From: Cnuella takakiae
GTDB taxonomy: Bacteria; Bacteroidota; Bacteroidia; Chitinophagales; Chitinophagaceae
NCBI RefSeq assembly: GCF_001953305.1
Contig: NZ_MTFE01000010.1
Span: 240,146-304,145 of the forward strand
DNA: 64,000 nt
Reading direction: 5' to 3'
A model generated the notes under the pieces. The model was not told the DNA's origin and did no database searches. It saw only the letters and a list, made by a program, of their open reading frames with translations. Position numbers and translations under genes: made by a program. Positions 6,777-32,317 of this stretch are shown piece by piece. Position 1 is the first letter of the stretch; each line of letters begins with the position of its first letter.

Positions 6777-6777
6777 A

Positions 6778-15337: not shown

Positions 15338-16847
15338 GTTTGTTTTGTTTTAGAAGAGTGTAAATGCCGCTTACCAGCGCCTTGTCAAAAAGGTTGTTCG
15401 TACACATTTCTTTTGCCGAACTAAAAGTGTCAATGCCTTGAAGGTGGAAGTACCGGGTAACGGATTGTACATGTTTTGCTTTCGATTGGCCTTCTTCCGT
15501 ATTGGCGGTGTCGAAGCCATAGCGAAACTGCTTTAGTTCATCCAGCACTTCGTTGATGGTATAGGCATAAAGGATCTTATCTACGATCATTTGTGCCCTT
15601 GCAAACGCAAAAATGGAATCTTCCCTTACATTTCGGGCCATCGACACCCTTAACGAGTAAACGTAACGATACAGCCATAAGCCAGCTTCAAACAGCCTTT
15701 CAAAGCCGAAGCGGCTGACATAAGCGGTGAGCAGTATTTCATACAGCTCTTTTAGGAAAACGGTACCATCCCTGCCGTGCAGCAGCTGATTCCTGAACAA
15801 AATGAATGGATCGGGAAGCCGGTGGTCGGAGCTGCTTTGGAACAGGATATCGTGCAACTCCAGGTACTCCTGTATATAGTCCAAAAAGTTGTTGCCATCA
15901 TACAAGGGTTGCCTGATGTGCCGGAAAGGGCTTTCATTCATTTGGAAAGCATGGTGTCCCTGCTTTTGCACCAGTGCATAGTAAAACGAAAGATCCTCTG
16001 CCTGATGCACCGTGCGTTCGGTGAATTCATCAATGATGGTTTCCTTAATGCTTCGCTCATCGCGGTACAGCGGGAAAGCCTGCCAGCTTTTGAAGTTCCA
16101 ATAGCGGACCTTGATCAGATTTTTGATGCAATGCTCTATCTTTTGCGGGGGCCAGTGTTCCCACCTGCGAGCCTGGTAAGCGATGGTCTTGTTGCTGTCA
16201 ATAGCCCGAAGGTGGTGCGCCTTGGCAATATCCGGTCCGCTCAGGCGTACGCCTCCTGTATTCTGTGTTTCGAAAAAGGTATAGGCAAGGTCTTCGCTTT
16301 GGGTAACGATCAAGGTGACATTGATTTGTGCCAGGCAAACAATATCCTCGAAATGAATGTCTGCAAAGGCAGGCACCTCCCCATTGGCAATAGCCTTTAA
16401 GTAGCTGTGCACATGCCGGATGTTTTCAATCGATTCCGGCAAATGGTAAGCAATGTTTGCGTTTACCTTATAGCGTAAAAAAGAATTCAGGATCAGCAGG
16501 GTAGTAAGTCTTTGCTGCCCGTCAATGATGTGTAGCTTGTCGCCATCCTGGTGCAGAATAATGCTGCCCAGGTAATAAAGCGGTCGCTCCGCAACAGGAA
16601 GCTTTGCATGTTCCGCCAGGTCGTTCAACAGTTTGTTTACCTGCCGTTCTTTCCATACATAGGGCCGTTGGTATTCCGGGATGCTGATATGACCGGTGAT
16701 GGATTTGCTTGGTAAGGGCTTTTGTTGCACCAACAATAAATCTTCGAGCGTGCAGCTGACTACTTCTACCGGTTCGTTGGTAAATTTTGATGTTTGTTGG
16801 TTATTGATTGTTGCGGCATCCAATGCTAGACTAGCCAGTATGCTCAT
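15330..16847 (-). CDS. DUF262 protein without visible HNH domain
   Basis: A 505-residue second DUF262 protein. It has SIPEYQRPYVWKERQVNKLL at about 53-72 and the LHIIDGQQRLTTLLIL box near 107-122, preceded by YYLGSIILHQDG. The C-terminal half is helical and lacks the HxxP and N-N-L motifs of DUF1524, so it looks like a GmrS-like sensor half beside the complete neighbour. Its TGA lies within the ATGGCTGA that starts the downstream DUF262 gene, so the two are translationally coupled and probably form a complex. The ATG at 16847 lies 17 bases after the hsdS stop, and an alternative start near residue 49 would also leave the domain complete. Confidence 0.8.
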   Translation of the reverse strand: MSILASLALDAATINNQQTSKFTNEPVEVVSCTLEDLLLVQQKPLPSKSITGHISIPEYQRPYVWKERQVNKLLNDLAEHAKLPVAERPLYYLGSIILHQDGDKLHIIDGQQRLTTLLILNSFLRYKVNANIAYHLPESIENIRHVHSYLKAIANGEVPAFADIHFEDIVCLAQINVTLIVTQSEDLAYTFFETQNTGGVRLSGPDIAKAHHLRAIDSNKTIAYQARRWEHWPPQKIEHCIKNLIKVRYWNFKSWQAFPLYRDERSIKETIIDEFTERTVHQAEDLSFYYALVQKQGHHAFQMNESPFRHIRQPLYDGNNFLDYIQEYLELHDILFQSSSDHRLPDPFILFRNQLLHGRDGTVFLKELYEILLTAYVSRFGFERLFEAGLWLYRYVYSLRVSMARNVREDSIFAFARAQMIVDKILYAYTINEVLDELKQFRYGFDTANTEEGQSKAKHVQSVTRYFHLQGIDTFSSAKEMCTNNLFDKALVSGIYTLLKQNKHG

Positions 16848-16864: not shown

Positions 16865-18193
16865 TTAGCTCACTTTGATTTTGCCGGTTACAGCGGCGTT
16901 GATTAACGTTGCTTTGTACTCCCTAAATTTTTCTATTTGTTGATTTTGCAACTCAATAAGCTTACTAAACTTTTCTTTTTCTTTTTGTAATTTTTCTACA
17001 ATCTCTAGTTGCTCATTAATTGGAGGCAATACTAACTTTACTTTTTTCAAATCTCCAATACCAACATTGCCTTGAGTATTTGTATTTATTTGATTCCGGA
17101 TATCTATTGCAAAAGCATCAGATTTAATGTAATAAAATAAATACAATCCCAACAGTTTACTTGGGTTTGGTTTGATTGTTACGCAGGAATAGGAAACGAC
17201 AAATTCAAAATCAATGTTTATATAAGAAGCAGTTCCGATTGTGGCGTAACGAGCTAAAATAACGTCGCCCATTGAACTCTTAATCTTCTTTGAAAGATTT
17301 AAATAGTCTCTTCGGCTTACTTTCTTACAGCTTTCAAAGTTAATATCACTTGCAAATTCTTCTAAGTCACCGGTCATAATATACGGCACGCCACTTTCTC
17401 TAGTTGGAGGCATATAGTGATCGACATCAGCTACAGCGTTGAATGCATAGTTCATTATTAAAATCTCCCAATGCTCCGGTATCTCTCCAATCCATTCCAC
17501 CCCGCTGTCCTTCATCCGTACATCCGGGTTGAGGCCACGGGTAACGGCTTTGTGGATAAGGATTTGCCGGCGCTCCTGCAACAGTTCAATCAGTTTTTCC
17601 TTTTGCACAATGGCTTTGTCGACCTGGGCGGTTTTGCGGTCAAGGAAAGCGGCAATGGCGGTTTGCTCTTCGATGGGTGGGAGAGATAATAACAGTTCAC
17701 CAAAATCACTATATCTGAAATCGGTTGACCTTTCACGAATTCCTTTTGCTAATGACTCGATAAAGCCATTTTTAGCTAAGCTTCTCAGGAAGTAAGCGTA
17801 GTAATATGGATCGACTTTCCCTTCTTCACGTGGAGTACATGCTGCATAAACCGGTGTTGACTTTCCATCTGAATCAGAAACACCTATTGCACCAGCGAAA
17901 GCATCCATTGCATGAATAACTAAGTCTCCCTTTCTAATTCCTTGGTAACCATGCTCCTTTAAGGCATTAGTAAAACCGTCAGTTTTTCTGTTTATCCTCA
18001 ATGTAACTTGTCCATCACGAAAGCAGGTTACTATGTCATCATCAGGTCTTACTGGTCGTTCTTGTTTTACAAATAGCCATTTGCCTCTTTGAACCTGCCA
18101 GTGCATAGGAATTTCTCCCAGCCACTCAACCCCTGTTTCTTTATAAGCAGGATACTTTTCAACCCGAACTTTTTTCATTACCGCTTCCATCAT
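16865..18193 (-). CDS. hsdS: Type I restriction-modification S subunit
   Basis: A 442-residue HsdS with the usual two half-repeats. Each target recognition domain begins with a matching motif (TGVEWLGEIPMHWQ near 20-33 and SGVEWIGEIPEHWE near 233-246). Each is followed by a conserved helix: LPPIEEQTAIAAFLDRKTAQ in the middle and LPPINEQLEIVEKLQ with a coiled coil at the end. The ATGATG start overlaps the hsdM stop. The DNA of the recognition domains, 16980-17460 and 17690-18080, is AT-richer than the conserved helices, as expected of exchanged specificity segments. The target sequence cannot be read from the protein. Confidence 0.93.
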   Translation of the reverse strand: MMEAVMKKVRVEKYPAYKETGVEWLGEIPMHWQVQRGKWLFVKQERPVRPDDDIVTCFRDGQVTLRINRKTDGFTNALKEHGYQGIRKGDLVIHAMDAFAGAIGVSDSDGKSTPVYAACTPREEGKVDPYYYAYFLRSLAKNGFIESLAKGIRERSTDFRYSDFGELLLSLPPIEEQTAIAAFLDRKTAQVDKAIVQKEKLIELLQERRQILIHKAVTRGLNPDVRMKDSGVEWIGEIPEHWEILIMNYAFNAVADVDHYMPPTRESGVPYIMTGDLEEFASDINFESCKKVSRRDYLNLSKKIKSSMGDVILARYATIGTASYINIDFEFVVSYSCVTIKPNPSKLLGLYLFYYIKSDAFAIDIRNQINTNTQGNVGIGDLKKVKLVLPPINEQLEIVEKLQKEKEKFSKLIELQNQQIEKFREYKATLINAAVTGKIKVS

Positions 18194-20557
18194 CCCAGGT
18201 TTAAAATGTCGTGAATCAATCCATCGCTTTCCCGCTCTAGTTGCAAGATTTCTTCGGTCACCAGCTCAATATCCCGCAGGGGTTTGTGGCGGTAGAAGTA
18301 TTTGTTGAAGGAGATCTCGTAACCAATCTTCACCGCTTCCATATTGATCCAGGCTTCGGACACATGGGGCCTTACTTCTTTTAGGAAATAGTGATAAATG
18401 TTGTCTTTCAGCGGCACGTTCTCCGTATCGCGGAGGTCGGCCTCTGTTTCGTATTGCAGGTACTCGCCTCTTTTAGCAGTGGGATAGTAGCCATAATCGG
18501 GCAACTGCTCTTCGGTACAGCCCAGCAGGAGGAGCAAATCCGTCAGCTTTTCGCCGGTGAGCTTAACGGTGCCGCGGATCACTTTCTCGGCGGCTGCATC
18601 ATACCAGCTTACGGCATTGAGGATAGCGTTCTTCTCGGAAGCACCCAGCTTAAGACTCATAGCTTTTAGTTCCATGTCCACCAGGGCTGCAAACGCGTTG
18701 AAATCATTGTATTCGTCCTGCCCGATGCGCTCCATCAGCAGGTTAGCCGTTTGCAACAGGCCTAGGCCTTTTTGCCAGGTATCAGGGCTTGTCAGCGCTT
18801 TAGTTTGCTTGGCATTCAGGTTCAGCTCCTGCTTTTCGCACCAGTCGGCAATGGCTTTTGCATGTTGGCCCAAGCTCGTATACAGGTCTTCGCCCCACTC
18901 GCTCCAGGCCCATTGCATAGGTTCACGCAGGCCCCGGTCGAAGCGCAGTGTTTCGATGCGTGCGGCCGAGAACTGTGCCTTCAGGCGTTTGGGTCGTTCG
19001 ATGGTTACCTTGTAGTAGCCAAAGTCTGAATTATCGAAGATCTTGGAAGCAATGCCTTCGTCTTCGCCAGTGGCGTCGGCCACCTTTTTTTCCACCGCTT
19101 CCATTTCGCGGTACACCCGTACAATCTCACGGATATCTTCGGGGCTGAACTCGCAGTTTTTATTACCCAGGTTCTTGCGCAGCTTGCGATAGAGCTGGCC
19201 GGCATCAATGATCTGCACCTTGCCCTTGCGGTGTGCAGGCTTGTTATTGGAAAGGAGCCAGATATAAGTGGTGATACCTGTGTTGTAAAACAGGTTGTTG
19301 GGCAACTGGATGATGGCTTCCAGCCAGTCGTTTTCGATGATGTAGCGGCGGATATTGCTTTCGCCGCTGCCCGCATCGCCGGTAAACAGGCTGGAGCCGT
19401 TGTGTACCGAGGCTATGCGGCTACCCAACGGCGAAAAGCGCAGTGGCTTCATCTTGTTCACCATCTCCATCAGGAAAAGTAGCTGCCCATCGGAGGTACG
19501 GGGTATAGCGTCGGCTTCTTCAATAGTACCCCAGTAATCGGGCAACTGTATGCGAAAGCGAGGATCAATTACGTCTTTGCCATCCTTGATATTCTTTACC
19601 TCGCTGCTCCAGCTTTTGCCATAAGGCGGGTTGGAAAGCATAAAGTCGAAATGCTTACCGGCAAATTCATCACTACTGAGGGTAGAACCGTTCTTGATGT
19701 TCTCCGGGTCATTACCCTTGATCATCATATCGCTCTTACAGATGGCGTAGGTTTCGTCGTTGATCTCCTTGCCAAAAAGGTACACATCGCCAGTAGCGCG
19801 GATGCCGCCTTCAGGATCTTTGATAAAGTTCTGCGCCTCCGTAAGCATACCACCCGATCCGCAGGCGGGATCATAGATGGTCATTACCGGAGGCAGCACA
19901 TCCTGCACGGGCTCAAACACGATGTGGGTCATCAGGTCAATCACCTCACGGGGGGGTGAAGTGTTCCCCTGCCTCCTCGTTGTTTTCTTCGTTGAACTTC
20001 CGGATCAGCTCTTCAAACACATAACCCATACCCAGGTTGGAGAGGGCAGGCAGCTTGCGGCCGTCGGGATCAGTCTTTTCAAAAGGAGTTAGGTTGATAG
20101 CTGGCGAGGTAAACTTCTCCAGCACATTCAGCAGCACGTCTTTGACAGCCATGTGGCGAACCTGCTCGCGCAGCTTGAACTTCTCAATGATCTCCTGCAC
20201 ATTGGCGCTAAAGCCATTGAGGTAAGCATTGAAGTTAGCCTCCAGTATTTGCCGGTTGTTGGTAGCGGTATCTTTCAGGCGCTGCAGGGTCCACTCGCTG
20301 GTATTGTAAAACACAAACCCAGAGGCATCGCGCAGGCCGGCTTCATCCAGTTCTTTCAAGTTGGCATCTTCCTTCTGGAAGCGCAGTTCTTCCATCACGG
20401 CTTCCTTGGAGGGCTCCAACAAGGCATCGAGGCGGCGCAGCACCACCATGGGCAGGATCACATCGCGGTACTTACCGCGTACATATATATCGCGCAGGCA
20501 GTCGTCGGCAATGGACCATATAAAGGAAACGAGGCGGTTGTGAACGGAGTGGTTCAT
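18190..20557 (-). pseudogene. hsdM: Type I restriction-modification M subunit, frameshifted at a C7 tract
   Basis: Two adjacent frames together encode one HsdM. The first, 20557-19946 (203 residues), has the helical N-terminal domain (FIWSIADDCLRDIYVRGKY) and ends in NNEEAGEHFTPP followed by TGA. The second, open to 18190, carries the N6-adenine methylase domain with motif I DPACGSGGML and motif IV SNPPYG, and the C-terminal helical part. The family consensus at the junction is GEHFTPREV; six C bases on the coding strand would give exactly this, but seven are present (G7 on the plus strand, 19950-19956). The gene is otherwise intact, so it may be phase-variable, newly broken, or the extra base may be a sequencing error. 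It starts 46 bases after the receiver-protein gene. Confidence 0.88.
19950..19956 (-). repeat. Homopolymer tract (C7 on coding strand) at the hsdM frameshift
   Basis: Seven consecutive G on the plus strand sit exactly at the FTPREV codons of hsdM. Removing one base restores the 2,367-base frame. Such tracts are prone to slipped-strand mispairing and also to base-calling error. Confidence 0.8.
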
Positions 20558-20603: not shown

Positions 20604-21533
20604 TTAAGTGGAAGCTATATTCTGGACAAGCTGCCTAAACCACAAGAGCTGTTCAAGTAATGCAAACTTAAGCGCTTCCAATGTGTAACGGGAGTTTTGG
20701 TAAACCCTATCCGGGCTGTAATGGATTAAATTACCCGTAATCCAGTAAATACTAGTAGAGAGATTATCCAAATCTGATCCCTGGTAATCAAATTCTTTGT
20801 CCGTAAATTCTTTCCCATCATCAGCGGGCCGTCTTCCTGAAAGCCATTTTTTGGCGGCATTAAAGTCCAACATTCCGTTTCCGGTGCGAAAGAATTTGTC
20901 AGGCAAGATATTGGAAGAAAGCCGATTTAAGCTTTTGTAGATCGCCTCTTGTATCGCCCTTATCTGGGTAGCTTGTTCTTTGATTAAAGAAACACTAATG
21001 GGATCAAACTCTGCACACAACACTGAAACCAGCATCGATTCTACTTCTTTATCCAGGTACCCTTTCTTAAATAGCTCAAAGATTTCAGTATGCTGTTGCC
21101 TTGCGAGGTATTCATCGGATTTTGTAATCCTATCAACAATATATTGGAATAGCCTACTTTGATCGGTTACTTTCTCAAACACATCCAGTTTGCCGATATG
21201 CCTCGTCACCTTTTTATTGTCAGCAAAACCGGTGTTCAAACAAAAAGGTATTGGCTTATCACGCTTGGTGTTGATCTCATTTAATCCAAGCAGGGCGTTA
21301 CCTACAAAGTCAAAATCAACCGCCGTATCTTCTTCATCTACTAGACATAAAGCATCAAGGATGATAAAGTCTACTGAAGCATTATCGGCTATCTCTTCTA
21401 ATGCTGATTGCAAGTTGGCATAGTGCAACAAACTAATGTTGTACTCAGCGGCAGCGCCAGCTAATTCTGTCGCATAGTCTATATCATCGTCGATAATGAT
21501 CGTATTAATAACAAGATCATTTTTCATAAGCAT
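20604..21533 (-). CDS. Receiver-domain protein with helical output domain
   Basis: A 309-residue protein with an N-terminal response-regulator receiver fold. The acidic pair is in IIIDDDIDY (D15-D17), the phospho-acceptor is D60 in FIILDAL, the switch Thr is T101 in CLNTG and the conserved Lys is K121 in VFEKV, so the site appears complete. Residues about 135-309 have no DNA-binding helix-turn-helix I can recognise; they are mainly helical, with a late segment YWITGNLIHY ... LLEQLLWFRQLVQ. The start (ATG at 21533 or 21527) overlaps the end of the methylase-kinase fusion by 11-17 bases, so this is its obvious cognate partner. It precedes hsdM by 46 bases. Output through protein contact rather than DNA binding is inference. 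Confidence 0.75.
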   Translation of the reverse strand: MLMKNDLVINTIIIDDDIDYATELAGAAAEYNISLLHYANLQSALEEIADNASVDFIILDALCLVDEEDTAVDFDFVGNALLGLNEINTKRDKPIPFCLNTGFADNKKVTRHIGKLDVFEKVTDQSRLFQYIVDRITKSDEYLARQQHTEIFELFKKGYLDKEVESMLVSVLCAEFDPISVSLIKEQATQIRAIQEAIYKSLNRLSSNILPDKFFRTGNGMLDFNAAKKWLSGRRPADDGKEFTDKEFDYQGSDLDNLSTSIYWITGNLIHYSPDRVYQNSRYTLEALKFALLEQLLWFRQLVQNIAST

Positions 21534-24336
21534 TCAGTTTAAATGAAAAACGCATATTGAATTCACCTACCTCTTTGGATATATCTTCAACCGCAAGGAA
21601 AGCCCCTCCCATTGCCTTCAATGCCTTGTCAATAAATGCTCCTCCTATACCCATCCCACCCTTTGCTGCATTACTGGTGAATCCTTTTGCAATAAACTTC
21701 TCGGTAGTAAGCTCCTTAGTAGCTATACCATTGTTTTCGATAAAGACAAACACTTCCATAGGATCATTCCTATGATTGGTAATCCCGAATATCCTGATCA
21801 TGGATTTATGAGATGGTTTTCCTTGAAAGCCATGCACAAATGCATTGTCAAAAAAATTCTCAAAAACGCTTTGCAACAAGTGCTTATCTACCCATACCCT
21901 CGGAGCATTACGATTACCTTCAAACGCCTGTATATTTAAAGTGAACTTATCAGCATAATCAGGACCAACTTCCTTTTCTAAAAACTCCCACAAATCAATT
22001 AATTCCATTTGCAATGCCTCTTTCTTGATTTTTGTAAAATCATAAGTACGGCGTAAAATTTCGTCTACTCGTTTTACACTTTGGTTGATCCGGGAAATAG
22101 TATTTACAAGATTAAAATGCTGATACTGATCTTCACTTTGTCCAGGCAATATTCTATATGCTAAATCGGTAAGCTTTACGGGCTCTGAAGACTCATCTTT
22201 CCGCTTTAAGTACTGCTCTAACCGAAGCACCGCCGACTGGATGCTACCTAATGGTCCTTTTACTTTATGCTTCAACTCACCAATAAGCATCGATGCTTCG
22301 TCCCGGTTAGTCAGACTTTCATTCAGAAGAATTTCATCAACCAGTTTTTTTTGCTGATGCAATGGCACCCACATCACTTTGAGCGAAAAAAAGTCCTCCA
22401 AACGAAAATTCCTTTTGGCTGCCCGGTTCCTAATCCGATTGAGTTGATCAGTAAAATAGGGCCGTGTAAGCTGATAGGCCAGGAAGTGAGGTAACATTTT
22501 ATCAACATTGGGTTGCAGCCCAATTACCGGATTGCTTATCAATGCGGGGTCTGGTCCATTATAAACAGTAGGCTTTAACAATGCTCCTTCCGTAGTGATC
22601 AGGATTGTTCCGGCAGGAACCAGATAAGGCTCCAGCTCCCTACAGAGGGCAGCATACTTCGCAGGAGGCTTACTTCCTATCACACCCTCCACCTGAAGGT
22701 CGCTTGCATTAAATAAAGGTATAGCCCCCTTATCTGTAACTGTTGGCCGATGCGCTTTACTGGGCCTGTAAACCCTTATTCGGTTTGCAGTTTCTTTTTT
22801 CTGAACAGGAACAGACAGCATATCGCCAACGGTTCTGTAACCCTCTTCTTCGGTGTAAACCGGGGCGTTCAAAACGGCCACATCCAATGTGTATCCAACG
22901 GCCTTTACCTTAGCCAGGTTAATGGTATTGCCATGTTGACGCCATTGCTCCAGATGATATTGAGCTCCGATTACGGAAATCATCTTTTCAAAACCTTCCA
23001 GGGTTTCTTCACGGCCATCATAAGTAAAAACTTCTTGGCGCGCTGTTCTCATCCTCGATCTGTTGAGAATAACTAAAACTGTACGCACCTGCGAATAAGG
23101 CGCAAAGGCACCTTGTGGCAGGTGAACAATTGCATCGACAAGGTTTTCCGAAATCAAACGTTTCCGAAGCGCTACATACTTATGAGCGTTTGAAGTGATC
23201 AATAGGTCCGGCAAAATCAAGCAGGCTTTTCCATCTGGCTTGATATGCGCTAAGGCCATCTCGATGATCAACCAATAGTAATCATTTCCGAAACCCGCAA
23301 AATGATAAGAATGAGCTCGCTTTATGATACTACCCAAAAAGGGGGGATTAGAGATAAACCAATCGCTAAACCATCCCTGCTCTGCCCAGTCACAAAATGC
23401 ATCTTTCCTTGCGACCAACACATTACGAAAGCCACAGACTGCAAAATTGTATTTTGAAACAAGCACTGCATCCGGGTCAATATCTCCCACGACGGTTTGA
23501 AAATCTTTGTTGTTACCTGCTCTAAGTATTTGAGCAAGAAGCGTACTTTTTCCAGTAAACGGATCAAAAACCACTTCATTGTCCTTTATCTGGACAAGTG
23601 CTTGAGCAAGCTTTATAACAATAGCTGGGGTTGACCCTAGATTTTTAAACCTTCGCTTCCAAAAAAATTCGTTGGTAAGATTTAGAAAGAAATCTCTGAA
23701 ATCCTCCTCATCAATATTAGCAATCGAGTACCGACTGAAATAATCGCTAGTTTGGTTTTCATACCCTTCTTCACTTAATTCTTCATGTCGAAGATTGATT
23801 ACATAAATTGGTGAAAGCGTTGAATGATATAAAAGTTCAAAAATAGTATTCTTCACATGGTGTTCAATCCCCTGAAATGCTTTGATAGCGGTATCAAACA
23901 AACCATAGAAGCGTTGTGATTGTCCTAACTGGATCAGTTGGTCCACAAATCTTTGCTCTTTTGCTTCAAGGCTATCCTGGTGAAAATATCCAAGGATGCT
24001 TACATCTCCATATTTTAAGGTGATTGCAAATGCGGGTAATAATACTTCAATCAAATGGTCTGAACCCAATCTGCTTTGCCGCAACAGATCCGCAATTTTG
24101 TTCAAACCATTCTTAAGATTTTCAAAAGCTAAACTCATTAACTCAACCTTTCCATCAGGAAGTACCCGGAACAACTCAGGATGTTTAGACACCCTTGTTC
24201 GAACCTGAGATACAGCTACCAGTTCATTATCCCTGCGCTTGTAAAGGTTGTATTCATGGAGTTTGTCAGCGATCTCCTGCGGAGTAGCCGGGCCAAAATT
24301 TACCAGAATATGTTTGATAGCTTCGTGAAGTGTCAT
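21517..24336 (-). CDS. HARE-HTH / N6-adenine methylase / specificity-like / histidine kinase fusion
   Basis: Domains, numbered from an alternative upstream ATG at 24432; subtract 32 for the preferred start at 24336 (MTLHEAIKHILVNFG). HARE-HTH lies at 33-95. An N6 methylase follows with motif I VVFDPFTGKSTLLAQ (288-301) and motif IV SNPPFLG (361-367). A single HsdS/type IIG-like target recognition region spans about 530-705, ending in LEDFFSLKVMWVPLHQQ. A histidine kinase module follows: H-box GELKHKVKGPLGSIQS with H722, N-box ENFFDNAFVHGF (858-869), G1 ENNGI and G2 GGMGIGGAFID (925-935). The fusion is therefore a self-contained modifying enzyme joined to a phosphotransfer and ATP-binding module. 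The receiver gene overlaps its 3' end and the type I operon follows. The G1 box differs from the usual DxGxG. Whether all activities remain is unknown. I know of no named system with this domain order. Confidence 0.85.
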   Translation of the reverse strand: MTLHEAIKHILVNFGPATPQEIADKLHEYNLYKRRDNELVAVSQVRTRVSKHPELFRVLPDGKVELMSLAFENLKNGLNKIADLLRQSRLGSDHLIEVLLPAFAITLKYGDVSILGYFHQDSLEAKEQRFVDQLIQLGQSQRFYGLFDTAIKAFQGIEHHVKNTIFELLYHSTLSPIYVINLRHEELSEEGYENQTSDYFSRYSIANIDEEDFRDFFLNLTNEFFWKRRFKNLGSTPAIVIKLAQALVQIKDNEVVFDPFTGKSTLLAQILRAGNNKDFQTVVGDIDPDAVLVSKYNFAVCGFRNVLVARKDAFCDWAEQGWFSDWFISNPPFLGSIIKRAHSYHFAGFGNDYYWLIIEMALAHIKPDGKACLILPDLLITSNAHKYVALRKRLISENLVDAIVHLPQGAFAPYSQVRTVLVILNRSRMRTARQEVFTYDGREETLEGFEKMISVIGAQYHLEQWRQHGNTINLAKVKAVGYTLDVAVLNAPVYTEEEGYRTVGDMLSVPVQKKETANRIRVYRPSKAHRPTVTDKGAIPLFNASDLQVEGVIGSKPPAKYAALCRELEPYLVPAGTILITTEGALLKPTVYNGPDPALISNPVIGLQPNVDKMLPHFLAYQLTRPYFTDQLNRIRNRAAKRNFRLEDFFSLKVMWVPLHQQKKLVDEILLNESLTNRDEASMLIGELKHKVKGPLGSIQSAVLRLEQYLKRKDESSEPVKLTDLAYRILPGQSEDQYQHFNLVNTISRINQSVKRVDEILRRTYDFTKIKKEALQMELIDLWEFLEKEVGPDYADKFTLNIQAFEGNRNAPRVWVDKHLLQSVFENFFDNAFVHGFQGKPSHKSMIRIFGITNHRNDPMEVFVFIENNGIATKELTTEKFIAKGFTSNAAKGGMGIGGAFIDKALKAMGGAFLAVEDISKEVGEFNMRFSFKLNAYEK

Positions 24337-24555
24337 AGTTGAGTGGAACAAAAGTTCATCATGCCGGTGCAACCTATTTGCACAACTACATGCAATTACC
24401 AAATTTTCGTCTTGATAAATATCGGATCCCAACCCTTAAGTTGAGCGGCGCTATTACCTTAACGCCTGGCCCATAACTGAATAACAAAGACATAAAATAC
24501 ATGCATCACAGGCTTCCGAACCGATTGATGACTCCTTAACTACAAAACTAAAAAA

Positions 24556-24572
24556 GCCGGGTTTTCCCCGGC
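24556..24572 (-). terminator. Rho-independent terminator after the helicase gene
   Basis: A GCCGGG / CCCGGC stem with a 5-base loop, flanked by A5 on the left (T5 on the minus strand) and by a T-rich run on the right. It lies 46 bases after the stop of the methyltransferase-helicase gene and would also act in the plus direction. It separates the upstream gene set (27-31 kb) from the restriction operon. Confidence 0.75.
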
Positions 24573-24617: not shown

Positions 24618-27098
24618 CTATCCCTCATGGATCAGAGGGGAAGACACAACCTGTTTATAAGTGGTAAACAGGTTTTCAGACTGTGCATCCCAACAAATAA
24701 GCCGGTCAGGCCTGAGCAGCCCCAGCAGGGGTTTAAAATACGCTTTTGCGTTCTGACTAATAGCAACAACCAGCATACAGTTGGTTCGGGTGGCAATTGT
24801 GTACACAAACTCCTTTACTTCATCCTCATATTCAACTTCCGCCTGCAGGCTCCAAACTACCAGTTCTTTCTCCAACCCCTTTAATCGTAAAATGGTTGTT
24901 GTCTCAACCGGTATGCCAGCCCTCCTGATTTCGCGGCAGAGGCCATCATCTTTTTCCATGATGGTAACCTGGTTGATATCAAAAGGTAAATATGCTGCCC
25001 TAATGGCAATGATCTTTTGTGCCAGTTCGGTGTCGTTGGCCCCACCAACAATGATGGGACGGGCTCCCGGCGGAGCCCCTTTATAAGGGGTGATTTCTGC
25101 TGTCACTTCCCGGTCCAAAGAACTTGCAGCAATAGCTTCCGATAAAGGGTAGATGGCCTCGCATATCCGGAAAGGTAGCCGGTAGGAACCATTCAAACGG
25201 TAATAGACCCTTCGGGCCATGGCTTTGTCTCTGGGTATGGAACCAGACTGGCCAATATGCACTGCCTGCGCCAGGTCGCCGGCAAGCACCAGCCGGTCAA
25301 CGTTTTTCAGCATCATACCCATCAGCTTATAATCGGTAGGGGTACAATCCTGAAATTCATCCACAAAAACATAATCGAAAGGTGCCGGGAGCCGGCGGCT
25401 TTCCAGTTCGTTGAACAACATCTGCCTGCGGGCAAGATAAGACTGTCCAGCCTGAGGATCGGCATGCATCCATTTGCCGTATTTGTGTAAAGCGGTAAAA
25501 ACGGCCTTTCGCCTGGGGCCGCGGTTCAAACTGATTCTACGCCCCCTGCCCTTCCGTTCCACTCCCTGATAGTTGTCTTCACCCAATACCAGTTTGCATT
25601 GCAACCCATAAATCACCCGGTGGTATTCTTCCAGCAAAAAATCCGGGTTGAGAATTTCATTCCATTTGTCAGCTGCTATGCCCTGTTCTTTTTTTGTTTC
25701 CAGAACAAATCTTTCCAGGGCTTGCCGGTGGGTGTTCTCGTTGAACGGTTTGAATTGGATGCTGCCTACGTACTTACCCAGCATCTCGAAATGAACAAAC
25801 CGGATCTGAATGCTAAATTCAGCACCCGTAGTCAAATCCCCCGTACCATCGTTAACGCCATTTACCACTTTGTTGTATTGTTGCCTCACAGACTTTCCCT
25901 TGGCTTCAAGAAGGTCAGTCAACCAGGCACGCAGTTGCTTGATCAACGATTTATTAAACGTTGTTACCAATATATTCAAAGGTCCTGTCCACTTGTGCTT
26001 TTCCAGCACATTGATGATCTTTTCGGTAACGACAATACTTTTGCCACAACCGGCAGGGCCTGTTATGATGGAAGGCTGCTCTTCATATCGTGCTGCCCTG
26101 ATCTGGTCATCGTTTAACTGCACTTCGCGGCGTACACGCAGAGGAGGATTGAACAAATCCAATACCTCTGGTAAGGAGCGCATATTGAAGCTTAAACCAG
26201 ACTGCTGTTTTTCCAGGCCAAGCGCATTGAAACTGCCATCTGCCCAGGAAACGGCGCTTTTAGATGCCTTTAGCCTGTATTTCTCTACAAGGCGCATCCT
26301 GTATGCCGACACAACTGGCAAGGCACCCTGAAAGACAGACTCGTCACTGGAAGCAACGATCATGTTGAAGCCGCGCTGCCGCATTTTTGCAGAAAGTGAG
26401 CTCATCATGTTCCGCTTTCTTTCTTGTGCAGAAGTAAGCATCAGAATTTTAGAAGGCTCAAATGATTTTATCAATTCATCGAAGTTGGATTGCAGGTAGG
26501 ATTCATTTTCCGACGAATCGAACAGGTAGCTGGCACATACCCATGGATTGGTGATGCTGAACTCGCCTCTGTTTGTCCAGGAATAAACATGGTATTCTAC
26601 CAAAAGATCGCGTAGTTCGGGATAATGTTTTATGGCTGCCGGCCAGAGGTAAGAGCGTAAATACGAAAGCATAAAAGGGCTGACGTCCACATTGATGATC
26701 CGCATCAGTGGCATACGTTTCCCCGCTCTTTTGAAAGCCACTGCGGCAAGGCCAAAACAAAACTGAACGCATCCAGTACCTGCTCCAAGGTCAAACACTT
26801 CAACCGGCTGACTGGCCGCGCAGGCTTCAGTTACTTTATCACAGAAATGAGACAGAAATACATTCATCCGCCTGGCCTGGTACCAAAGCGAGTAAGCAAG
26901 GGGTGTAGTGTACCGGTCGTAGCATAAATCAGTATTCTGTACCAGATTGTAAGCTTCCTGTTGGGCTATGCTTAGATCATAACCAAAGTTTGGATTTCGC
27001 TCATTGGCAGCAACAAATGCCTGAGCAGCTTCCAGGATAATTTGTTCAATGGTTGGTTGTTGGTTTCGGAACCACTGGGTGAGTTGGGTTCGGTTCAT
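24618..27098 (-). CDS. Methyltransferase-like domain fused to SF1 (UvrD-like) helicase
   Basis: An 826-residue fusion. The N-terminal third has a Rossmann methyltransferase signature, EVFDLGAGTGCVQF (motif I at 103-109), followed by an acidic strand end in RIINVDVSPFML and a class I-like layout to about residue 280. No NPPY-type motif is evident, although SITNPW (181-186) lies near that position. The second part is an SF1 helicase: Walker A GPAGCGKS (347-354), motif Ia LVTTFNKSLIKQLR, Walker B VFVDEFQD (577-584), motif III LVLAGDLAQAVH and a late TTTILRLKGLEKELVVW. Motif VI is less canonical (YTIATRTNCMLVV). The substrate of the methyltransferase-like part is unknown. The radical SAM gene lies 6 bases upstream and a terminator follows. 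Confidence 0.8.
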   Translation of the reverse strand: MNRTQLTQWFRNQQPTIEQIILEAAQAFVAANERNPNFGYDLSIAQQEAYNLVQNTDLCYDRYTTPLAYSLWYQARRMNVFLSHFCDKVTEACAASQPVEVFDLGAGTGCVQFCFGLAAVAFKRAGKRMPLMRIINVDVSPFMLSYLRSYLWPAAIKHYPELRDLLVEYHVYSWTNRGEFSITNPWVCASYLFDSSENESYLQSNFDELIKSFEPSKILMLTSAQERKRNMMSSLSAKMRQRGFNMIVASSDESVFQGALPVVSAYRMRLVEKYRLKASKSAVSWADGSFNALGLEKQQSGLSFNMRSLPEVLDLFNPPLRVRREVQLNDDQIRAARYEEQPSIITGPAGCGKSIVVTEKIINVLEKHKWTGPLNILVTTFNKSLIKQLRAWLTDLLEAKGKSVRQQYNKVVNGVNDGTGDLTTGAEFSIQIRFVHFEMLGKYVGSIQFKPFNENTHRQALERFVLETKKEQGIAADKWNEILNPDFLLEEYHRVIYGLQCKLVLGEDNYQGVERKGRGRRISLNRGPRRKAVFTALHKYGKWMHADPQAGQSYLARRQMLFNELESRRLPAPFDYVFVDEFQDCTPTDYKLMGMMLKNVDRLVLAGDLAQAVHIGQSGSIPRDKAMARRVYYRLNGSYRLPFRICEAIYPLSEAIAASSLDREVTAEITPYKGAPPGARPIIVGGANDTELAQKIIAIRAAYLPFDINQVTIMEKDDGLCREIRRAGIPVETTTILRLKGLEKELVVWSLQAEVEYEDEVKEFVYTIATRTNCMLVVAISQNAKAYFKPLLGLLRPDRLICWDAQSENLFTTYKQVVSSPLIHEG

Positions 27099-27104
27099 AT
27101 GCAG

Positions 27105-27956
27105 TTAAATTGGTTGAAAGCCTTCTTTCCCTATTCCAAGATCGGGTATATAGCTTTTGATGATGCCTTCCACTTCGCTATACCGTTCAGCAGTCCAGCC
27201 ATACTTTCGTACCAACTGTTTTGCTTCTTCGCGAGTGCCGGCTGTGAACCGGCCTCTGTCGGGGTGGAAAGGCTGGATGATAAACTTGCTGATTCCGGTA
27301 TCCAGAAGCGATTGGGCAAAAGCATGAGGCTCTTCTACCGGTAGCAATGGTGTCATGGTGATACATGCCTGCACACCCGCTGCGGCAACTTCCTTGATGG
27401 CGGCCAGCCTTGCTTTGTTACCAGGGCATAGCGGCTCAAAAACTTTGCGTACCTCTTCGCTATCGGTGGTGATGGTCATGTTGACCTGCAGGTGCTGAAA
27501 TTGTTGCAACAAATCGATATCACGGGTAACAATAGGGCTCCGAGTTTGAATGACCAGCCGGGGCTGATGGTAGTGAAGCAACTCCTTAAGTAATTCCCTG
27601 GTCAGTTCAATTTTTCGCTCGATGGGTTGATACGGGTCCGTTACGGAACTCATATACACCGTTTTTCCCGTAATTGGCTTGGAACGGTACTTTTTCAACA
27701 GTGCCAACGCATTGGCTTTTACATCCACCCAATACCCCCAGTTTTCCTGAGCAACTGTATCTCTGGCAAAAAATGCCGCATAGCAATACGTACAGCCAAA
27801 AGCACAACCAGAATAAGGATTAAGGCTATAATCATAATCGGCCATAAAACCACTGGTCTTGTTGAGTATCGTACCTACCTCCTTGTACTGGATTCGGGAA
27901 TGCCCTAGCTGGTTGAGTTTTGGCGGCTGTTGCTCAGAGAAAAGATCGGCCTGCAT
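27105..27956 (-). CDS. SPL-family radical SAM protein
   Basis: A 283-residue radical SAM protein with the CxxxCxxC cluster CAFGCTYC (C51, C55, C58) after DYSLNPYSG, as in spore photoproduct lyase-like (SplB-type) small radical SAM proteins widely found in bacteria. The barrel follows, with VYMSSVTDPYQPIERK, LVIQTRSPIVTRDID and VNMTITTDSEEVRKVFEP matching that family. It would bind a 4Fe-4S cluster and cleave SAM; the substrate is unknown, and DNA repair is only one possibility. It lies 29 bases downstream of the HDR-motif gene and 6 bases before the methyltransferase-helicase, so it belongs to the same transcript. Confidence 0.88.
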   Translation of the reverse strand: MQADLFSEQQPPKLNQLGHSRIQYKEVGTILNKTSGFMADYDYSLNPYSGCAFGCTYCYAAFFARDTVAQENWGYWVDVKANALALLKKYRSKPITGKTVYMSSVTDPYQPIERKIELTRELLKELLHYHQPRLVIQTRSPIVTRDIDLLQQFQHLQVNMTITTDSEEVRKVFEPLCPGNKARLAAIKEVAAAGVQACITMTPLLPVEEPHAFAQSLLDTGISKFIIQPFHPDRGRFTAGTREEAKQLVRKYGWTAERYSEVEGIIKSYIPDLGIGKEGFQPI

Positions 27957-27985
27957 GTTTATAGCTGGGTTATAAAGAAAGGAAA

Positions 27986-28960
27986 TTACGCAAACAAAGG
28001 ATTACTTGTTTGCGCCAACTCGCTTTGCTTGATCCAATTGTTAAACCTTTCCAGTTTATTCTTGATCGCTTTATAACCAAAAGTACCTTCAACCCCATTG
28101 TGTGAAAGCCGTTTATAAGGCGATACTGCTACCCAATAACTATCCTTGGTAGCCTCACCATTCCTACCAATGGCATCCAGGCCCGAGCCGGAATAGATCA
28201 TTACGTTATTCGTGATGATCAGCCGGTCGTGAAAGTCAGGTCTATTGGCGGTATGAAACTCGACAACAGCATGGGGCAAAATCCGGGTGACAGCCTGCCT
28301 GATCTTATCTACTCGCGACTTAATCATTGACAGCGGGATTTCATTAAGGCTCCCACCCCTTGACCGTCCAATAAGGGTTAAGTAATAGGGGCACTTTTGC
28401 TGCCGAGGCACCACACTGTCAACCATCTTCATACAGGCTTCAACGGCATTTTCAGTAAACAAATAGGGATCAGCAATTACCATGGCATTGTGTGGCTGGA
28501 GCAGCTCTTCCAAAAACTGCCAGGTGGTTTTATCCCGGCCTACCAGGTCCTGAACCCGATCCTGAAACATACGACCAGCTTCGGGTTTAGGCCCAAAGCA
28601 ATAAAACCCCGTTTGCCTGCACAACTGGCTGAGTTTCTCACCAGAATAAGTTGCAGAAAGGAAATACAGGCTTTGTGGCTGCCGTGCAAAAAAGGCTTGC
28701 TCGTTGCTCCTCATTTCCGCAAAAGCCTGCGGATTGGCATTGATCCGCAAGTTTTTCACCAGGTGACGAAAGTACGGGTTATCCATTTGCGCATCGATCT
28801 GCACTTTGGGCACATCGGTTTGAATGGTCACGCCATTGAGCACTAGGTCGCGGAGGTGCAAAAAACCGATAGCGCGACTGTCGGAACCCAATTCAGATAG
28901 CAGGGGCTCACGAGCCATATGCAACAGGAAGTCGAAGCTGCAATAAGCGGGAATTGACAT
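27986..28960 (-). CDS. HDR-motif partner of DUF3696 ATPase (pair B), PLD-like candidate
   Basis: A 324-residue protein paralogous to the product at 5745-6776. The shared signature is an acidic D-P-Y-L-x-T-E (AMVIADPYLFTENAVEA, 159-175). A basic/glycine segment follows (LIGRSRGGSLNE) and then an HDR motif with a following glycine turn: FHDRLIITNNVMIYSGSGLDAIG (243-265, shown here as key residues H244, D245, R246 and SGSG at 257-260). The H-D-R ... S-G-S-G layout resembles one active-site half of phospholipase D-like nucleases. It begins 14 bases after the ATPase stop and precedes the radical SAM gene. I know no named family; a nuclease partner is the working idea. Confidence 0.7.
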   Translation of the reverse strand: MSIPAYCSFDFLLHMAREPLLSELGSDSRAIGFLHLRDLVLNGVTIQTDVPKVQIDAQMDNPYFRHLVKNLRINANPQAFAEMRSNEQAFFARQPQSLYFLSATYSGEKLSQLCRQTGFYCFGPKPEAGRMFQDRVQDLVGRDKTTWQFLEELLQPHNAMVIADPYLFTENAVEACMKMVDSVVPRQQKCPYYLTLIGRSRGGSLNEIPLSMIKSRVDKIRQAVTRILPHAVVEFHTANRPDFHDRLIITNNVMIYSGSGLDAIGRNGEATKDSYWVAVSPYKRLSHNGVEGTFGYKAIKNKLERFNNWIKQSELAQTSNPLFA

Positions 28961-28974
28961 ACTGGCGCCTCCTT

Positions 28975-30894
28975 TTAGTTATTGCTTGCCTGCGTACGGT
29001 TCCAAATGCTGATGGCAATACGGTCGGCTTCATCGAAAAAACCGGTACCGAAATCATCGCTCAGTTTGCCATTATCATCAATGGTAATCTCCTTTATCTG
29101 CGGCTCCCCGGGCGGTATGTTTTCGGGATCGTAGAAGTAATAGATATTCACTGCTTCGGGTCCAATCACCTGCATGGCGGTCCAGTACTGGAGCTTGCGC
29201 ACCAGGTACTCGCTATGGGTTTCTACAATAAATTGAATGTTGAACTTGTGTGCGGCGTCAATTAACAAATCTGCGAATTTGGATTGTAGGGCCGGGTGAA
29301 GATTGGCCTCTGGCTCTTCAATACAAACAACAGAATTTCCAAACATGACGATACCATTTTCCCAATTATCTGCTTTCTTTTTGGCTGTCAGACAAATGTT
29401 CAACAAAATGGGCAAAAGCTGACTAACACCAAAACCGAGATCAGCCAAATTGATCTTTTTGCCTTTACGGTGTATAAATATTGCTTTAGTAAGACCAGAG
29501 TTGCCAATCTCCAGACTAATCCGATCACCCAATCCGAATTTCTGAGTCCAGTATTCCAAAAAGTCTTGAATTACTTTTACATCAACCGCTTCTGCTTCGA
29601 TAAATGCTTCGATCAGCTCATGTAGCGAATGACTATCGTTTTCCTGAGCAAAGTACCTACGTTGTGCACCGCGGGTTGATCCCATAAAATTAATACTGAG
29701 CTGTTGCTCCAGTTTACTAAACCCGTTGAGAATATTCTTGATGAAGTACTTCTGCAACAACCAATTACCGTAATAGGTAAGATCTTTTGATAAGTGTCCG
29801 CTCAAATCTTTCTCCTCTCTGCCAAGTTCAGCTCTTAGCTTTTCAAATATGGCAGACATAATGGTTCCTTCTAAACCATGCTCTGAACCATCTCTGAACA
29901 TCCATACTGAAGTATCAGGAATTCTGTGCTTCGGCACAATCAAACTGGTTCCTTGTAAAACAGTAACGAGCATCTCATGCTCTGCCTGCTTAATTTGAGA
30001 TAATGTTGCTTCATCAAGACTATGCAGGCGATTTAAGGAATTAGCAGTAAAAGGGCCATATTTTATACCCGGTCCTTTAGGGTAATATTGGAAGATCAAC
30101 CCCTCGCTTAAACCAAGCTCAGCTTCACTAAGCTTATTTTTAGACAGTTCTTGTAAGTTCAATTTTCTCAATGAACTATTATCATAAAAGGGATATCGGA
30201 ACGATGGCATTATTTCATCGTACAAATCGGCGGAACTCGCAAAAAGAGTAAAACTTCCGGCGTCTTCCTGTCCGACCAATTCATTAGCGTGCCTTATTCC
30301 TTGTTCAGTTTCAATCCGTTCCAAATCCTTGGATAGCTGATCTTTGACCAGTTGTAGATTTAGTTTGATACAATGAACATAACTTGAACTCATCCTCTTT
30401 CGTTCTTCATCTTCCAAAGAATGCCATTCATCCTTGAACTTAGTACTTGCTTCTTCAACATCAAAGGGTCGGAATGATACATGAACCAAGGTTTCCTGCT
30501 GCTGCTCTTTTTGTCGAAAGATGTGAAAACAAACCAGTTTTCCATCACGTTGCAACCCCGTTGGCTCCTGCTCATAAGCAAGTTCGAGCTGGTAATCCCC
30601 TTCGAGGTAATCAAGATGAAACGGAAATGTAAAATACATAACTCTGTCGCGTTCTGAATGTTCATCATTTAAGACGCTAGAAAAATCACCAAGTGCTGAT
30701 GTATCTCCAAATGTTAACACACCTAACTCCGGATGCCTTTTGATGCTGTTCCGCAGCAACATCAATGCCCTAATCAAACTACTCTTCCCCGCACTATTGG
30801 TACCCGTAAGTATAGTAATTGGCTTGAAATTAAAAGACTGCTCGGCGGCAAAGACACGAAAGTTGGCTGCAGAAAACGAATGAAGGTGAGGCAT
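28975..30894 (-). CDS. AAA ATPase with DUF3696 C-terminus (pair B)
   Basis: A 639-residue RecF/OLD-like ATPase. The N-terminus reads FSAANFRVFAAEQSFNFKPI, then Walker A GTNSAGKSS near 30-38. The signature region is LADLGFGVSQLLPILLNI, Walker B is VVCIEEPEANLHPALQ, and the following loop is FIVETHSEYLVRKLQYW. The DUF3696 end is visible as IYYFYDPENIPPGEPQ ... GKLSDDFGTGFFDEADRIAIS. No TOPRIM domain is seen. It is the first gene of the minus-strand island after the divergent WYL regulator, and is a diverged paralogue of the 687-residue ATPase 20 kb away. Confidence 0.86.
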   Translation of the reverse strand: MPHLHSFSAANFRVFAAEQSFNFKPITILTGTNSAGKSSLIRALMLLRNSIKRHPELGVLTFGDTSALGDFSSVLNDEHSERDRVMYFTFPFHLDYLEGDYQLELAYEQEPTGLQRDGKLVCFHIFRQKEQQQETLVHVSFRPFDVEEASTKFKDEWHSLEDEERKRMSSSYVHCIKLNLQLVKDQLSKDLERIETEQGIRHANELVGQEDAGSFTLFASSADLYDEIMPSFRYPFYDNSSLRKLNLQELSKNKLSEAELGLSEGLIFQYYPKGPGIKYGPFTANSLNRLHSLDEATLSQIKQAEHEMLVTVLQGTSLIVPKHRIPDTSVWMFRDGSEHGLEGTIMSAIFEKLRAELGREEKDLSGHLSKDLTYYGNWLLQKYFIKNILNGFSKLEQQLSINFMGSTRGAQRRYFAQENDSHSLHELIEAFIEAEAVDVKVIQDFLEYWTQKFGLGDRISLEIGNSGLTKAIFIHRKGKKINLADLGFGVSQLLPILLNICLTAKKKADNWENGIVMFGNSVVCIEEPEANLHPALQSKFADLLIDAAHKFNIQFIVETHSEYLVRKLQYWTAMQVIGPEAVNIYYFYDPENIPPGEPQIKEITIDDNGKLSDDFGTGFFDEADRIAISIWNRTQASNN

Positions 30895-31318: not shown

Positions 31319-32317
31319 ATGCCTAAAAACAAGAACTTCCAGCTTCGTATCGAGATACTGGACGAATTGCTTTCCAGCAAAAGAAAAAGATCCATTGCCG
31401 AACTACTCGATACACTGAACAACCGGTTGGAGGCAAGCGGCAATACCGCCATCGGCAAAAGGTCGCTGTACGACGACCTGAATTATCTTGAAAATGAGAA
31501 AGGCGCACCCATCAAGCGGGCAACCAAGGCTGATCCGCTGATTTACTATACAGAACCCTTTTCCATTAAGAATATACCGGTACCGGAAGAAGATGTCGCT
31601 TATTTAAGGCAGGCAATCGAAATTCTGAAAAAGGCTACCGACCTCAACATCATCAACGATATTGAGAACATAGTGGTGAAATTGGAAAATAAAGTACACA
31701 CCAATATTCCCAATAGTACAACAATGATTGCTTTTGAAGAGCACACAAAGGCACTGGGACAGGAGCACCTTGATGACCTGTTCACCGCCATTAGGGAGCG
31801 TTGTGCCTTGAAGGTGATTTACAAACCGTTTAAAAAAGAAGCAAGGGACTGGATCATACATCCCTATATGCTGAAAGAGTACCGGAACCGGTGGTTCCTG
31901 TTGTGCCGGTACGAAGGAGCCGACCACCTGATGACCCTCGCCCTTGACCGGATTCAAAAAATTAGCAACTGTAGGAATGAGTTTATTGATAATGTCTTGT
32001 TCGACCCAGACACTTACTTCAACAACCTAATTGGTGTTACGCTACCTGAAGCCTCTGCACCGGAAACCATTAAAATTGCGGTAAGCGAAGAATCTGCGGA
32101 TTATATTATCACCAAACCGCTGCACAAGAGCCAGCGTGTGATATCAGCAGCTGGCGACCCGATGATTATTAAAGTTGAACTTTTTGTCAATTTTGAATTG
32201 AAGTCTTACCTGCTAAGCTATGGGCCCAGAATAAGGGTATTAGCTCCTGCACACCTTAGGGAGGAAATGGCAGCTCTTTACAATGAAGGGGCAGCTCATT
32301 ACCAAATTGCACTTTAG
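31319..32317 (+). CDS. WYL-domain transcriptional regulator
   Basis: A 332-residue regulator with an N-terminal winged-helix (residues 7-80: IEILDELLSSKRKRSIAELL, KRSLYDDLNYLENEKGAP) and a WYL domain (about 155-225). The latter is seen in ALKVIYKPFKKEARDWIIHP, YRNRWFLLCRYE and LDRIQKI. A WCX-type C-terminal domain follows. WYL proteins such as CapW and BrxR repress defence loci and release on binding a ligand, often nucleic acid. Divergent placement directly beside the ATPase gene fits control of the island. The ATG at 31319 is the natural start. I infer the regulated target from position only. Confidence 0.9.
   Translation: MPKNKNFQLRIEILDELLSSKRKRSIAELLDTLNNRLEASGNTAIGKRSLYDDLNYLENEKGAPIKRATKADPLIYYTEPFSIKNIPVPEEDVAYLRQAIEILKKATDLNIINDIENIVVKLENKVHTNIPNSTTMIAFEEHTKALGQEHLDDLFTAIRERCALKVIYKPFKKEARDWIIHPYMLKEYRNRWFLLCRYEGADHLMTLALDRIQKISNCRNEFIDNVLFDPDTYFNNLIGVTLPEASAPETIKIAVSEESADYIITKPLHKSQRVISAAGDPMIIKVELFVNFELKSYLLSYGPRIRVLAPAHLREEMAALYNEGAAHYQIAL

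What the first reader, a model, noticed from the sequence alone, without database searches (positions are those of the whole stretch)
20604..24432. DNA methylase fused to a histidine kinase, paired with a receiver protein at the head of a type I R-M operon
Seen: one continuous frame contains HARE-HTH, N6 methylase motifs (DPFTGKST, NPPF), an HsdS-like specificity region, an H-box (H722), and HATPase N/G boxes. The overlapping next gene has a complete receiver site (D15-D17, D60, T101, K121) and no recognised DNA-binding output. hsdM, hsdS, two DUF262 genes and hsdR follow in the same direction. Established: HARE-HTH domains accompany methylases and restriction genes; phosphorelays couple sensing to output. 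Inference: phosphorylation could connect DNA-methylation state or a phage signal to activity of the restriction complex. I know of no named system with this domain order.
Basis: partly seen in the sequence, partly recalled or inferred. Interest (0 to 1): 0.93.

Follow-up and report, generated by a model that had tools for sequence, protein, structure and literature searches.

The report
Methylase-fused histidine kinase for restriction
Some bacteria carry a sensor that looks like a worn-out DNA-methylating enzyme joined to a signalling kinase, paired with a partner protein and usually beside a DNA-cutting defence system, which suggests that such defences may be switched by a phosphate signal in response to DNA.

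Summary
The ORF joins an HsdM-like domain, one HsdS-type target-recognition domain (TRD) and a histidine kinase (DHp plus ATPase); the overlapping gene encodes a divergent receiver. It is not a one-off. I found 21 loci with the fusion (20 assignable to Bacteroidota), and in 21 of 21 the receiver gene follows directly. The phospho-acceptor His and the receiver Asp and Lys are invariant at about 20% identity. Kinase and receiver distances co-vary most strongly of the ten domain pairs compared (r=0.72).

No fusion keeps both methylase motifs (0 of 21; 11 of 17 neighbouring HsdMs do), so the methylase half is probably a non-catalytic DNA reader. Neighbours: type I R-M in 17 of 21 loci; McrBC, or an AAA/PLD-like/radical-SAM/UvrD cluster, in one each.

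Best reading: a two-component module whose sensor is a degenerate type I modification enzyme and whose output sets the adjacent restriction effector. The window's hsdM is frameshifted. My paper searches found no named system with this architecture.

The parts
21517..24336 (-). fusion gene (probable ATG start; the ORF listed runs from a TTG at 24432): HTH-like N-terminus, HsdM-like domain, HsdS-type TRD, DHp and ATPase of a histidine kinase
24184..24336 (-). HARE-HTH-like N-terminus (residues 33-83), below the Pfam cut-off
   Evidence: 17.4 of 25.9 bits; 4 of 19 members
22996..23631 (-). HsdM-like N6-methylase domain (residues 268-479); motif IV NPPF present, motif I altered (DPFTGKST)
22318..22770 (-). 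HsdS-type target-recognition region (residues 555-705)
22267..22269 (-). codon of H722, predicted phospho-acceptor His
   Evidence: invariant; aligned with the DHp His of PDB 2c2a/5uht
21580..21888 (-). HATPase_c domain (residues 849-951) with N box N863/H867, G1 N900/G902 and G2 G928/G930
20604..21533 (-). receiver gene (309 aa), 17-base overlap with the fusion; residues 1-140 receiver, 141-309 helical C-terminal domain of unknown family
21354..21356 (-). codon of D60, predicted phosphorylation site
   Evidence: invariant
19946..20557 (-). hsdM, 5' piece (HsdM_N)
18190..19944 (-). hsdM, 3' piece (N6_Mtase); frame changes at the seven-C tract 19950-19956
16865..18193 (-). hsdS
15330..16847 (-). 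DUF262/GmrSD_N protein with DUF7834
13418..15337 (-). GmrSD-like protein (GmrSD_N plus GmrSD_C)
10356..13418 (-). hsdR
24556..24572 (-). terminator-like hairpin upstream of the fusion
24618..30894 (-). upstream cluster UvrD-like helicase, radical SAM, PLD-like, AAA ATPase; in L182 a cluster of the same composition follows the fusion-receiver pair
31319..32317 (+). WYL-domain regulator, divergent from the cluster

Best explanation
The fusion and its neighbour are a two-component signalling module attached to restriction systems. The HsdM-like plus TRD half, no longer a competent methylase in most members, binds DNA (or something shaped like it). Binding changes the dimeric kinase half, which moves a phosphate from H722 to D60 of the receiver; the receiver's C-terminal domain then sets the activity or assembly of the adjacent restriction effector (type I R-M with GmrSD-like genes here, other effectors elsewhere). 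Shown: the domain make-up, the conserved pairing, the invariant His, Asp and Lys, the kinase-receiver covariation, the degenerate methylase motifs, the exchangeable neighbours. Inferred: DNA binding as input, phosphotransfer, dimer geometry (two protomers would resemble the two HsdM and two TRDs of a type I methylase), and restriction as output; the sign of control (activation or relief) is open.
For: Receiver gene directly after the fusion on the same strand in 21 of 21 loci, spacing -35 to +7 bases. H722 and kinase N/G-box residues N863, H867, N900, G902, G928, G930 invariant in 19 of 19, and in 20 of 20 in a set that adds L185 and L186 and leaves out L074; receiver D16, D60, K121 likewise. 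Profile match to whole DHp-ATPase kinases in the PDB (8e-15). Kinase-receiver distance correlation 0.72, highest of ten domain pairs, n=20, permutation p=0.0002; methylase or receiver domain against neighbouring HsdM 0.04 and 0.06, n=15, not significant. Reciprocal search: of 14 of 395 genomes with the receiver, 11 have the intact fusion upstream, 1 a fusion cut by a contig end, 1 a fusion broken by frameshifts. Methylase motifs I and IV together in 0 of 21 fusions and 11 of 17 neighbouring HsdMs. Effectors exchangeable: hsdM/hsdS in 17 of 21, McrBC in L032, AAA/PLD-like/radical SAM/UvrD in L182. WYL gene nearby in 15 of 21.
Against: No biochemistry or structure. The Asp of the kinase G1 box is Asn in 20 of 20 and the acidic residue after the phospho-His is present in 4 of 20, so the kinase departs from the commonest type. 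The receiver matches the Pfam receiver model in only 3 of 19. Kinase and receiver C-terminus do correlate weakly with HsdM (0.20, p=0.03; 0.24, p=0.013). One of 14 receiver relatives has no fusion on its 5.4-kb contig and lies among CRISPR genes. The window's fusion keeps motif IV NPPF, so this copy may not be wholly dead. Window hsdM is frameshifted. In L075 no restriction gene was recognised. Of the 80 best HsdM relatives 4 have the pair, so type I R-M does not need it.
Confidence: 0.6

Rival explanations
1. Guard (decoy): the degenerate methylase-TRD half imitates the restriction enzyme and is bound by phage anti-restriction proteins or DNA mimics; binding triggers the phosphorelay and a second effector such as the GmrSD-like genes.
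For: Degenerate catalysis with a TRD more alike among fusions (mean identity 0.265) than whole HsdS from the same 15 loci (0.194), as for a constant rather than a varying ligand; second-line nucleases in the locus; exchangeable effectors.
Against: No phage-protein ligand was tested. The TRD-HsdS comparison sets one domain against a whole two-TRD protein and is only indicative. Three loci keep a type I-like reader without a type I system next to it (L032, L182, L075).
Confidence: 0.13
2. Expression control: the relay sets transcription or translation of the operon, like CapK/CapS or WYL regulators, rather than enzyme activity.
For: WYL gene in 15 of 21 loci; one receiver carries SLFN_AlbA_2 and others an S1/CSD-like extension (alignment); [quoted passage not shown]
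Against: No DNA-binding output domain was recognised in the window's receiver. The pair sits inside the operon, before hsdM, not as a separate regulator.
Confidence: 0.15
3. No phosphorelay: the C-terminal part is a GHKL ATPase used as a conformational switch or clamp, and the receiver-like protein a structural partner.
For: G1 Asp to Asn in 20 of 20 and loss of the acid after His in 16 of 20; weak receiver scores.
Against: His, Asp and Lys invariant across partners at about 20% identity, and the strongest covariation is between kinase and receiver domains.
Confidence: 0.09
4. An active second methylase with a regulatory tail that alters the specificity of the type I enzyme.
For: Window copy keeps NPPF and a near-motif I; the TRD region resembles HsdS.
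Against: 0 of 21 have both motifs intact while 17 of 17 neighbouring HsdMs keep motif IV.
Confidence: 0.03

Closest known systems
CapK/CapS (DNA-damage-activated kinase and repressor beside immune operons; PMC13373217, abstract and passages seen)
   Same: A GHKL-type kinase and its substrate encoded beside exchangeable immune operons, some near R-M; DNA is the published signal.
   Different: CapK is HTH-STAS-GHKL and phosphorylates a Ser of a STAS-wHTH repressor. Here the input is HsdM-like plus TRD, there is a DHp His, and the partner is a receiver.
Type I R-M modification enzyme (HsdM + HsdS)
   Same: Domain homology: HsdM (PDB E=2.4e-54) and HsdS (about 1e-15).
   Different: M and one TRD in one chain with a kinase; methylase motifs degenerate; a true hsdM and hsdS lie alongside in 17 of 21 loci.
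Classical two-component systems (for example the kinase of PDB 2c2a/5uht)
   Same: DHp and ATPase domains, phospho-acceptor His, receiver D/D/K and T or S.
   Different: Cytosolic DNA-enzyme-like sensor; G1 Asp is Asn in 20 of 20; the receiver has an unfamiliar C-terminal domain.
MADS (methylation-associated defence system)
   Same: Best PADLOC hit of the fusion is mad2, 69.8 bits, over the methylase.
   Different: NCBIfam MAD2 30.1 bits against a cut-off of 720; kinase and receiver lie outside the match.
Predicted systems with HATPase and REC in DefensePredictor (PMC13092281, figure legend and passages only)
   Same: A figure of predicted, unvalidated defence systems includes HATPase and receiver domains.
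   Different: The figure is not held, so I cannot tell whether any is this architecture.

Membership tests
Two-component system | DHp phospho-acceptor His | tested here: met
   H722 in 19 of 19, 20 of 20; aligned with the DHp His of a solved kinase
Two-component system | ATPase N and G boxes | tested here: inconclusive
   N863, G902, G928, G930 invariant, HATPase_c in 18 of 19; but the canonical G1 Asp is Asn in 20 of 20
Two-component system | Receiver with acidic pair, phospho-Asp, T/S and Lys | tested here: met
   PDB response regulators as best hits, 2e-4
Two-component system | Kinase and receiver encoded together | tested here: met
   21 of 21 loci
Two-component system | DHp/ATPase/receiver folds | not testable with these tools
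Two-component system | His to Asp phosphotransfer | not testable with these tools
   needs biochemistry
Type I modification subunit (HsdM) as an active enzyme | SAM motif I and catalytic motif IV | tested here: not met
   both together in 0 of 21 fusions; 11 of 17 neighbouring HsdMs. Window: motif IV kept, motif I altered
HARE-HTH protein | PF05066 above cut-off | tested here: not met
   17.4 of 25.9 bits; own genome no match; 4 of 19 members match at E<=0.01
CapK/CapS | STAS-containing kinase and STAS-wHTH substrate | tested here: not met
   no STAS or wHTH family in Pfam scans of fusions or receivers
MADS | MAD2 above NCBIfam cut-off | tested here: not met
   30.1 of 720 bits
BREX/Pgl | PglX above NCBIfam cut-off | tested here: not met
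   18.4 of 500 bits

The most novel reading that the evidence does not exclude
A new class of signal transduction: a histidine kinase that reads DNA with a retired type I modification enzyme (dead HsdM plus TRD) and, through a dedicated receiver, licenses or triggers whichever restriction effector is encoded next door, so that one sensor serves type I R-M, McrBC and other nucleases.
Probability: 0.4. Interest if true: 0.92.

Novelty: new variant of a known kind. Interest (0 to 1): 0.8.

Why it matters
How type I restriction is held back from the host's own DNA and released on invaders is a long-standing question. A dedicated His-Asp relay wired to a methylase-shaped DNA reader would be a direct, testable control path. 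It would also give two-component signalling a DNA-reading sensor and show that restriction effectors can be exchanged under one sensor, alongside the recently published CapK/CapS regulators.

Tried and rejected
Chance or assembly artefact: rejected, since 21 loci share the architecture and pairing.

HARE-HTH as a defining part: rejected as a family feature (4 of 19).

Receiver C-terminus as a DUF4145/HEPN-like domain: suggested by R192, E196 and H271, but the profile comparison gave probability 0.2 with a three-sequence template, no better than the controls (0.1 to 0.5). Left open.

Same specificity as the neighbouring HsdS: not supported; fusion TRDs match HsdS proteins of several loci weakly and not preferentially their own.

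Mobile-element collections: with the window fusion, 88 plasmid records matched and none covered 80%. With the L092 fusion, 1761 plasmid records matched, 3 covering 80%, all Myroides odoratimimus (one of the three read). Three queries from other branches found no plasmid match. Phages: 23 records matched, none covering 80%; the best, an unverified faecal scaffold, holds fusion, receiver, hsdM and hsdS. The viral-contig scan with the window fusion found nothing. The scan with A8 found one contig, which by ORFs and scores is the Rufibacter locus L082 again and is not counted.

Other phyla: 0 of 393 genomes of the phylum of G731 (the Microbulbifer genome behind L158) at E<=1e-65; the tool warns that an empty answer without a known positive shows nothing.

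L074, 97% like L073, was kept in the counts of 21 and left out of the distance test. In the motif count one of four motif I matches (L077) lies in the kinase part and is a chance match.

Papers: searches (listings seen), with passages read. None described this fusion. The HARE-HTH paper PMC3272235 is not held, and subscription journals are mostly outside the library.

Names recalled, from no call: HK853 for PDB 2c2a, Ocr as an anti-restriction protein, the consensus forms of motifs I and IV and of the H, N and G boxes.
Full report
What is there. The minus-strand ORF 21517-24432 (971 aa from a TTG, probably 939 aa from the ATG at 24336) and the overlapping ORF 20604-21533 (309 aa) are as described. 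Single-protein Pfam scores are strong only for N6_Mtase; HATPase_c, Methylase_S and HARE-HTH are below their cut-offs and the receiver scores 12.4 bits. The case therefore rests on relatives.

Relatives. A protein search of 395 genomes of the window's phylum gave 48 genomes with matches, most to the methylase only. Contexts of the long matches showed the same pair of genes in five genomes. Profile searches found more. In the phylum sample 12 of 395 genomes, the window's own included, have a match that runs through the kinase; in the class sample 11 of 395 do. The named-genome scan with the HsdM alignment gave 80 loci, of which 4 carry the pair; three of those are genomes already seen (contig lengths agree) and one is Rufibacter roseus. 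By my reading, 64 of the 80 hold at least 4.5 kb upstream of the match. A Myroides odoratimimus plasmid (43 kb, typed as mobilizable) and an unverified faecal phage scaffold add two. In all 21 loci: window, L031-L034, L038, L071-L078, L082, L180-L183, L185, L186. The phylum is Bacteroidota by inference: G150, of the window's family, has the contig length of a Chitinophagaceae record. L186 has no assigned host.

Pairing. The receiver gene follows the fusion on the same strand in 21 of 21 loci, from 35 bases of overlap to 7 bases apart. Searching the other way, 14 of 395 genomes hold a receiver of this family at E<=1e-12: 11 lie beside intact fusions, one beside a fusion cut by the contig end, one beside a fusion broken in several frames, and one (L202) has no fusion on its 5.4-kb contig and sits before Cas6, RT-Cas1 and Cas2 genes.

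Signalling residues. H722, N863, H867, N900, G902, G928 and G930 are invariant in 19 of 19 fusions and in 20 of 20 in a second set; the receiver's D16, D60 and K121 likewise. The profile of the kinase part aligns with whole DHp-ATPase kinases of the PDB, H722 falling on the His of SHELRTPL. Against a standard kinase: the G1-box Asp is Asn in 20 of 20, and an acidic residue follows the His in only 4 of 20. Distances between kinase domains correlate with those between receiver domains (r=0.72, n=20, p=0.0002), the highest of ten domain pairs, above kinase-TRD (0.50) and kinase-methylase (0.49) within the same protein. Against the neighbouring HsdM (n=15) the values are methylase 0.04, TRD 0.14, kinase 0.20 (p=0.03), receiver 0.06 and receiver C-terminus 0.24 (p=0.013). 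Permutation tests of this kind do not remove shared ancestry; the contrast, not the p-value, is the point.

Fusions match HsdM over the methylase and HsdS over the TRD. With one pattern for each motif, 0 of 21 fusions carry both motif I and motif IV (3 carry motif I in the methylase, 5 carry motif IV), against 11 of 17 neighbouring HsdMs with both and 17 of 17 with motif IV. The window's copy keeps NPPF and has DPFTGKST, so it is the least certain. TRDs of the fusions are more alike (0.265) than whole HsdS proteins of the same 15 loci (0.194), and 167 of 190 TRD pairs match at E<=1e-3 against 68 of 105 HsdS pairs; this compares a domain with a whole protein and is indicative only.

Effectors. 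hsdM and hsdS lie within 16 kb in 17 of 21 loci, in 15 of them with hsdM downstream on the same strand soon after the receiver. L032 has an AAA_5 gene and McrC instead; L076 has an HsdR-like gene upstream; L182 has an AAA ATPase, a PLD-like protein, a radical SAM protein and a UvrD-like helicase, the composition of the cluster just upstream of the fusion in the window; L075 has none that I recognised. A WYL-domain gene is within 16 kb in 15 of 21. Receivers vary at the C-terminus: one has SLFN_AlbA_2, one an S1/CSD match. PADLOC has no model that covers the family: one of 19 receivers and one of 18 kinase parts match a candidate model weakly.

This strain. hsdM changes frame at a seven-C tract; in 79 intact occurrences of the same site among relatives the longest C run is six. 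Either the type I system is off or phase-variable here, or the assembly has an error. The same-genus genome in the sample has no fusion at the threshold used, in keeping with patchy gain.

Mechanism. The best-supported account is a relay from a DNA-reading sensor to a restriction effector. Shown are architecture, pairing, invariant residues, covariation, degenerate motifs and exchangeable effectors; inferred are the ligand, the phosphate transfer and the output. Rivals are a guard for anti-restriction proteins, expression control, a GHKL switch without phosphotransfer and an active second methylase.

Known systems. The nearest in logic is CapK/CapS, a kinase-substrate pair beside exchangeable immune operons activated by single-stranded DNA (PMC13373217; abstract and passages), which differs in every domain but the ATPase. 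DefensePredictor (PMC13092281; legend and passages) lists predicted systems with HATPase and receiver domains whose layout I could not see. The BREX survey (PMC12839542; passages) mentions Schlafen proteins with a minimal histidine kinase, not this fusion. Nine paper searches gave no description of it.

Limits. No structure model. Sampling is mostly one phylum; the single outside sample was empty.

Noticed in passing
19950-19956: hsdM changes frame at a seven-C tract; intact relatives have at most six C at this site (79 occurrences). Possible phase variation, decay or assembly error.
   Followed up: partly
L202:421-1311: A receiver of this family without a fusion, directly before Cas6, RT-Cas1 and Cas2 genes.
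   Followed up: partly
27986-30894 and 5745-8841: Two pairs of an AAA_15 ATPase with DUF3696 and a smaller protein (PLD-like in the upstream pair) flank the R-M operon; the two ATPases are related (202 bits; Pfam).
   Followed up: no
24618-27098: UvrD-like helicase with an N-terminal stretch weakly like a methyltransferase, next to a radical SAM gene; related genes recur in L182.
   Followed up: partly
4282-5733 and 8852-10219: Exonuclease VII large-subunit-like and PIF1/RecD-like helicase genes on the same strand downstream of hsdR.
   Followed up: no
L082: In Rufibacter roseus the module follows prophage-like genes, and the same stretch is in an IMG/VR contig (L184).
   Followed up: partly
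L185: WYL, fusion, receiver, hsdM and hsdS lie on a 43-kb Myroides odoratimimus plasmid typed as mobilizable; fusion and receiver are annotated as N-6 DNA methylase and hypothetical protein.
   Followed up: yes
L201: A copy of the fusion broken in several frames with its receiver gene intact.
   Followed up: no
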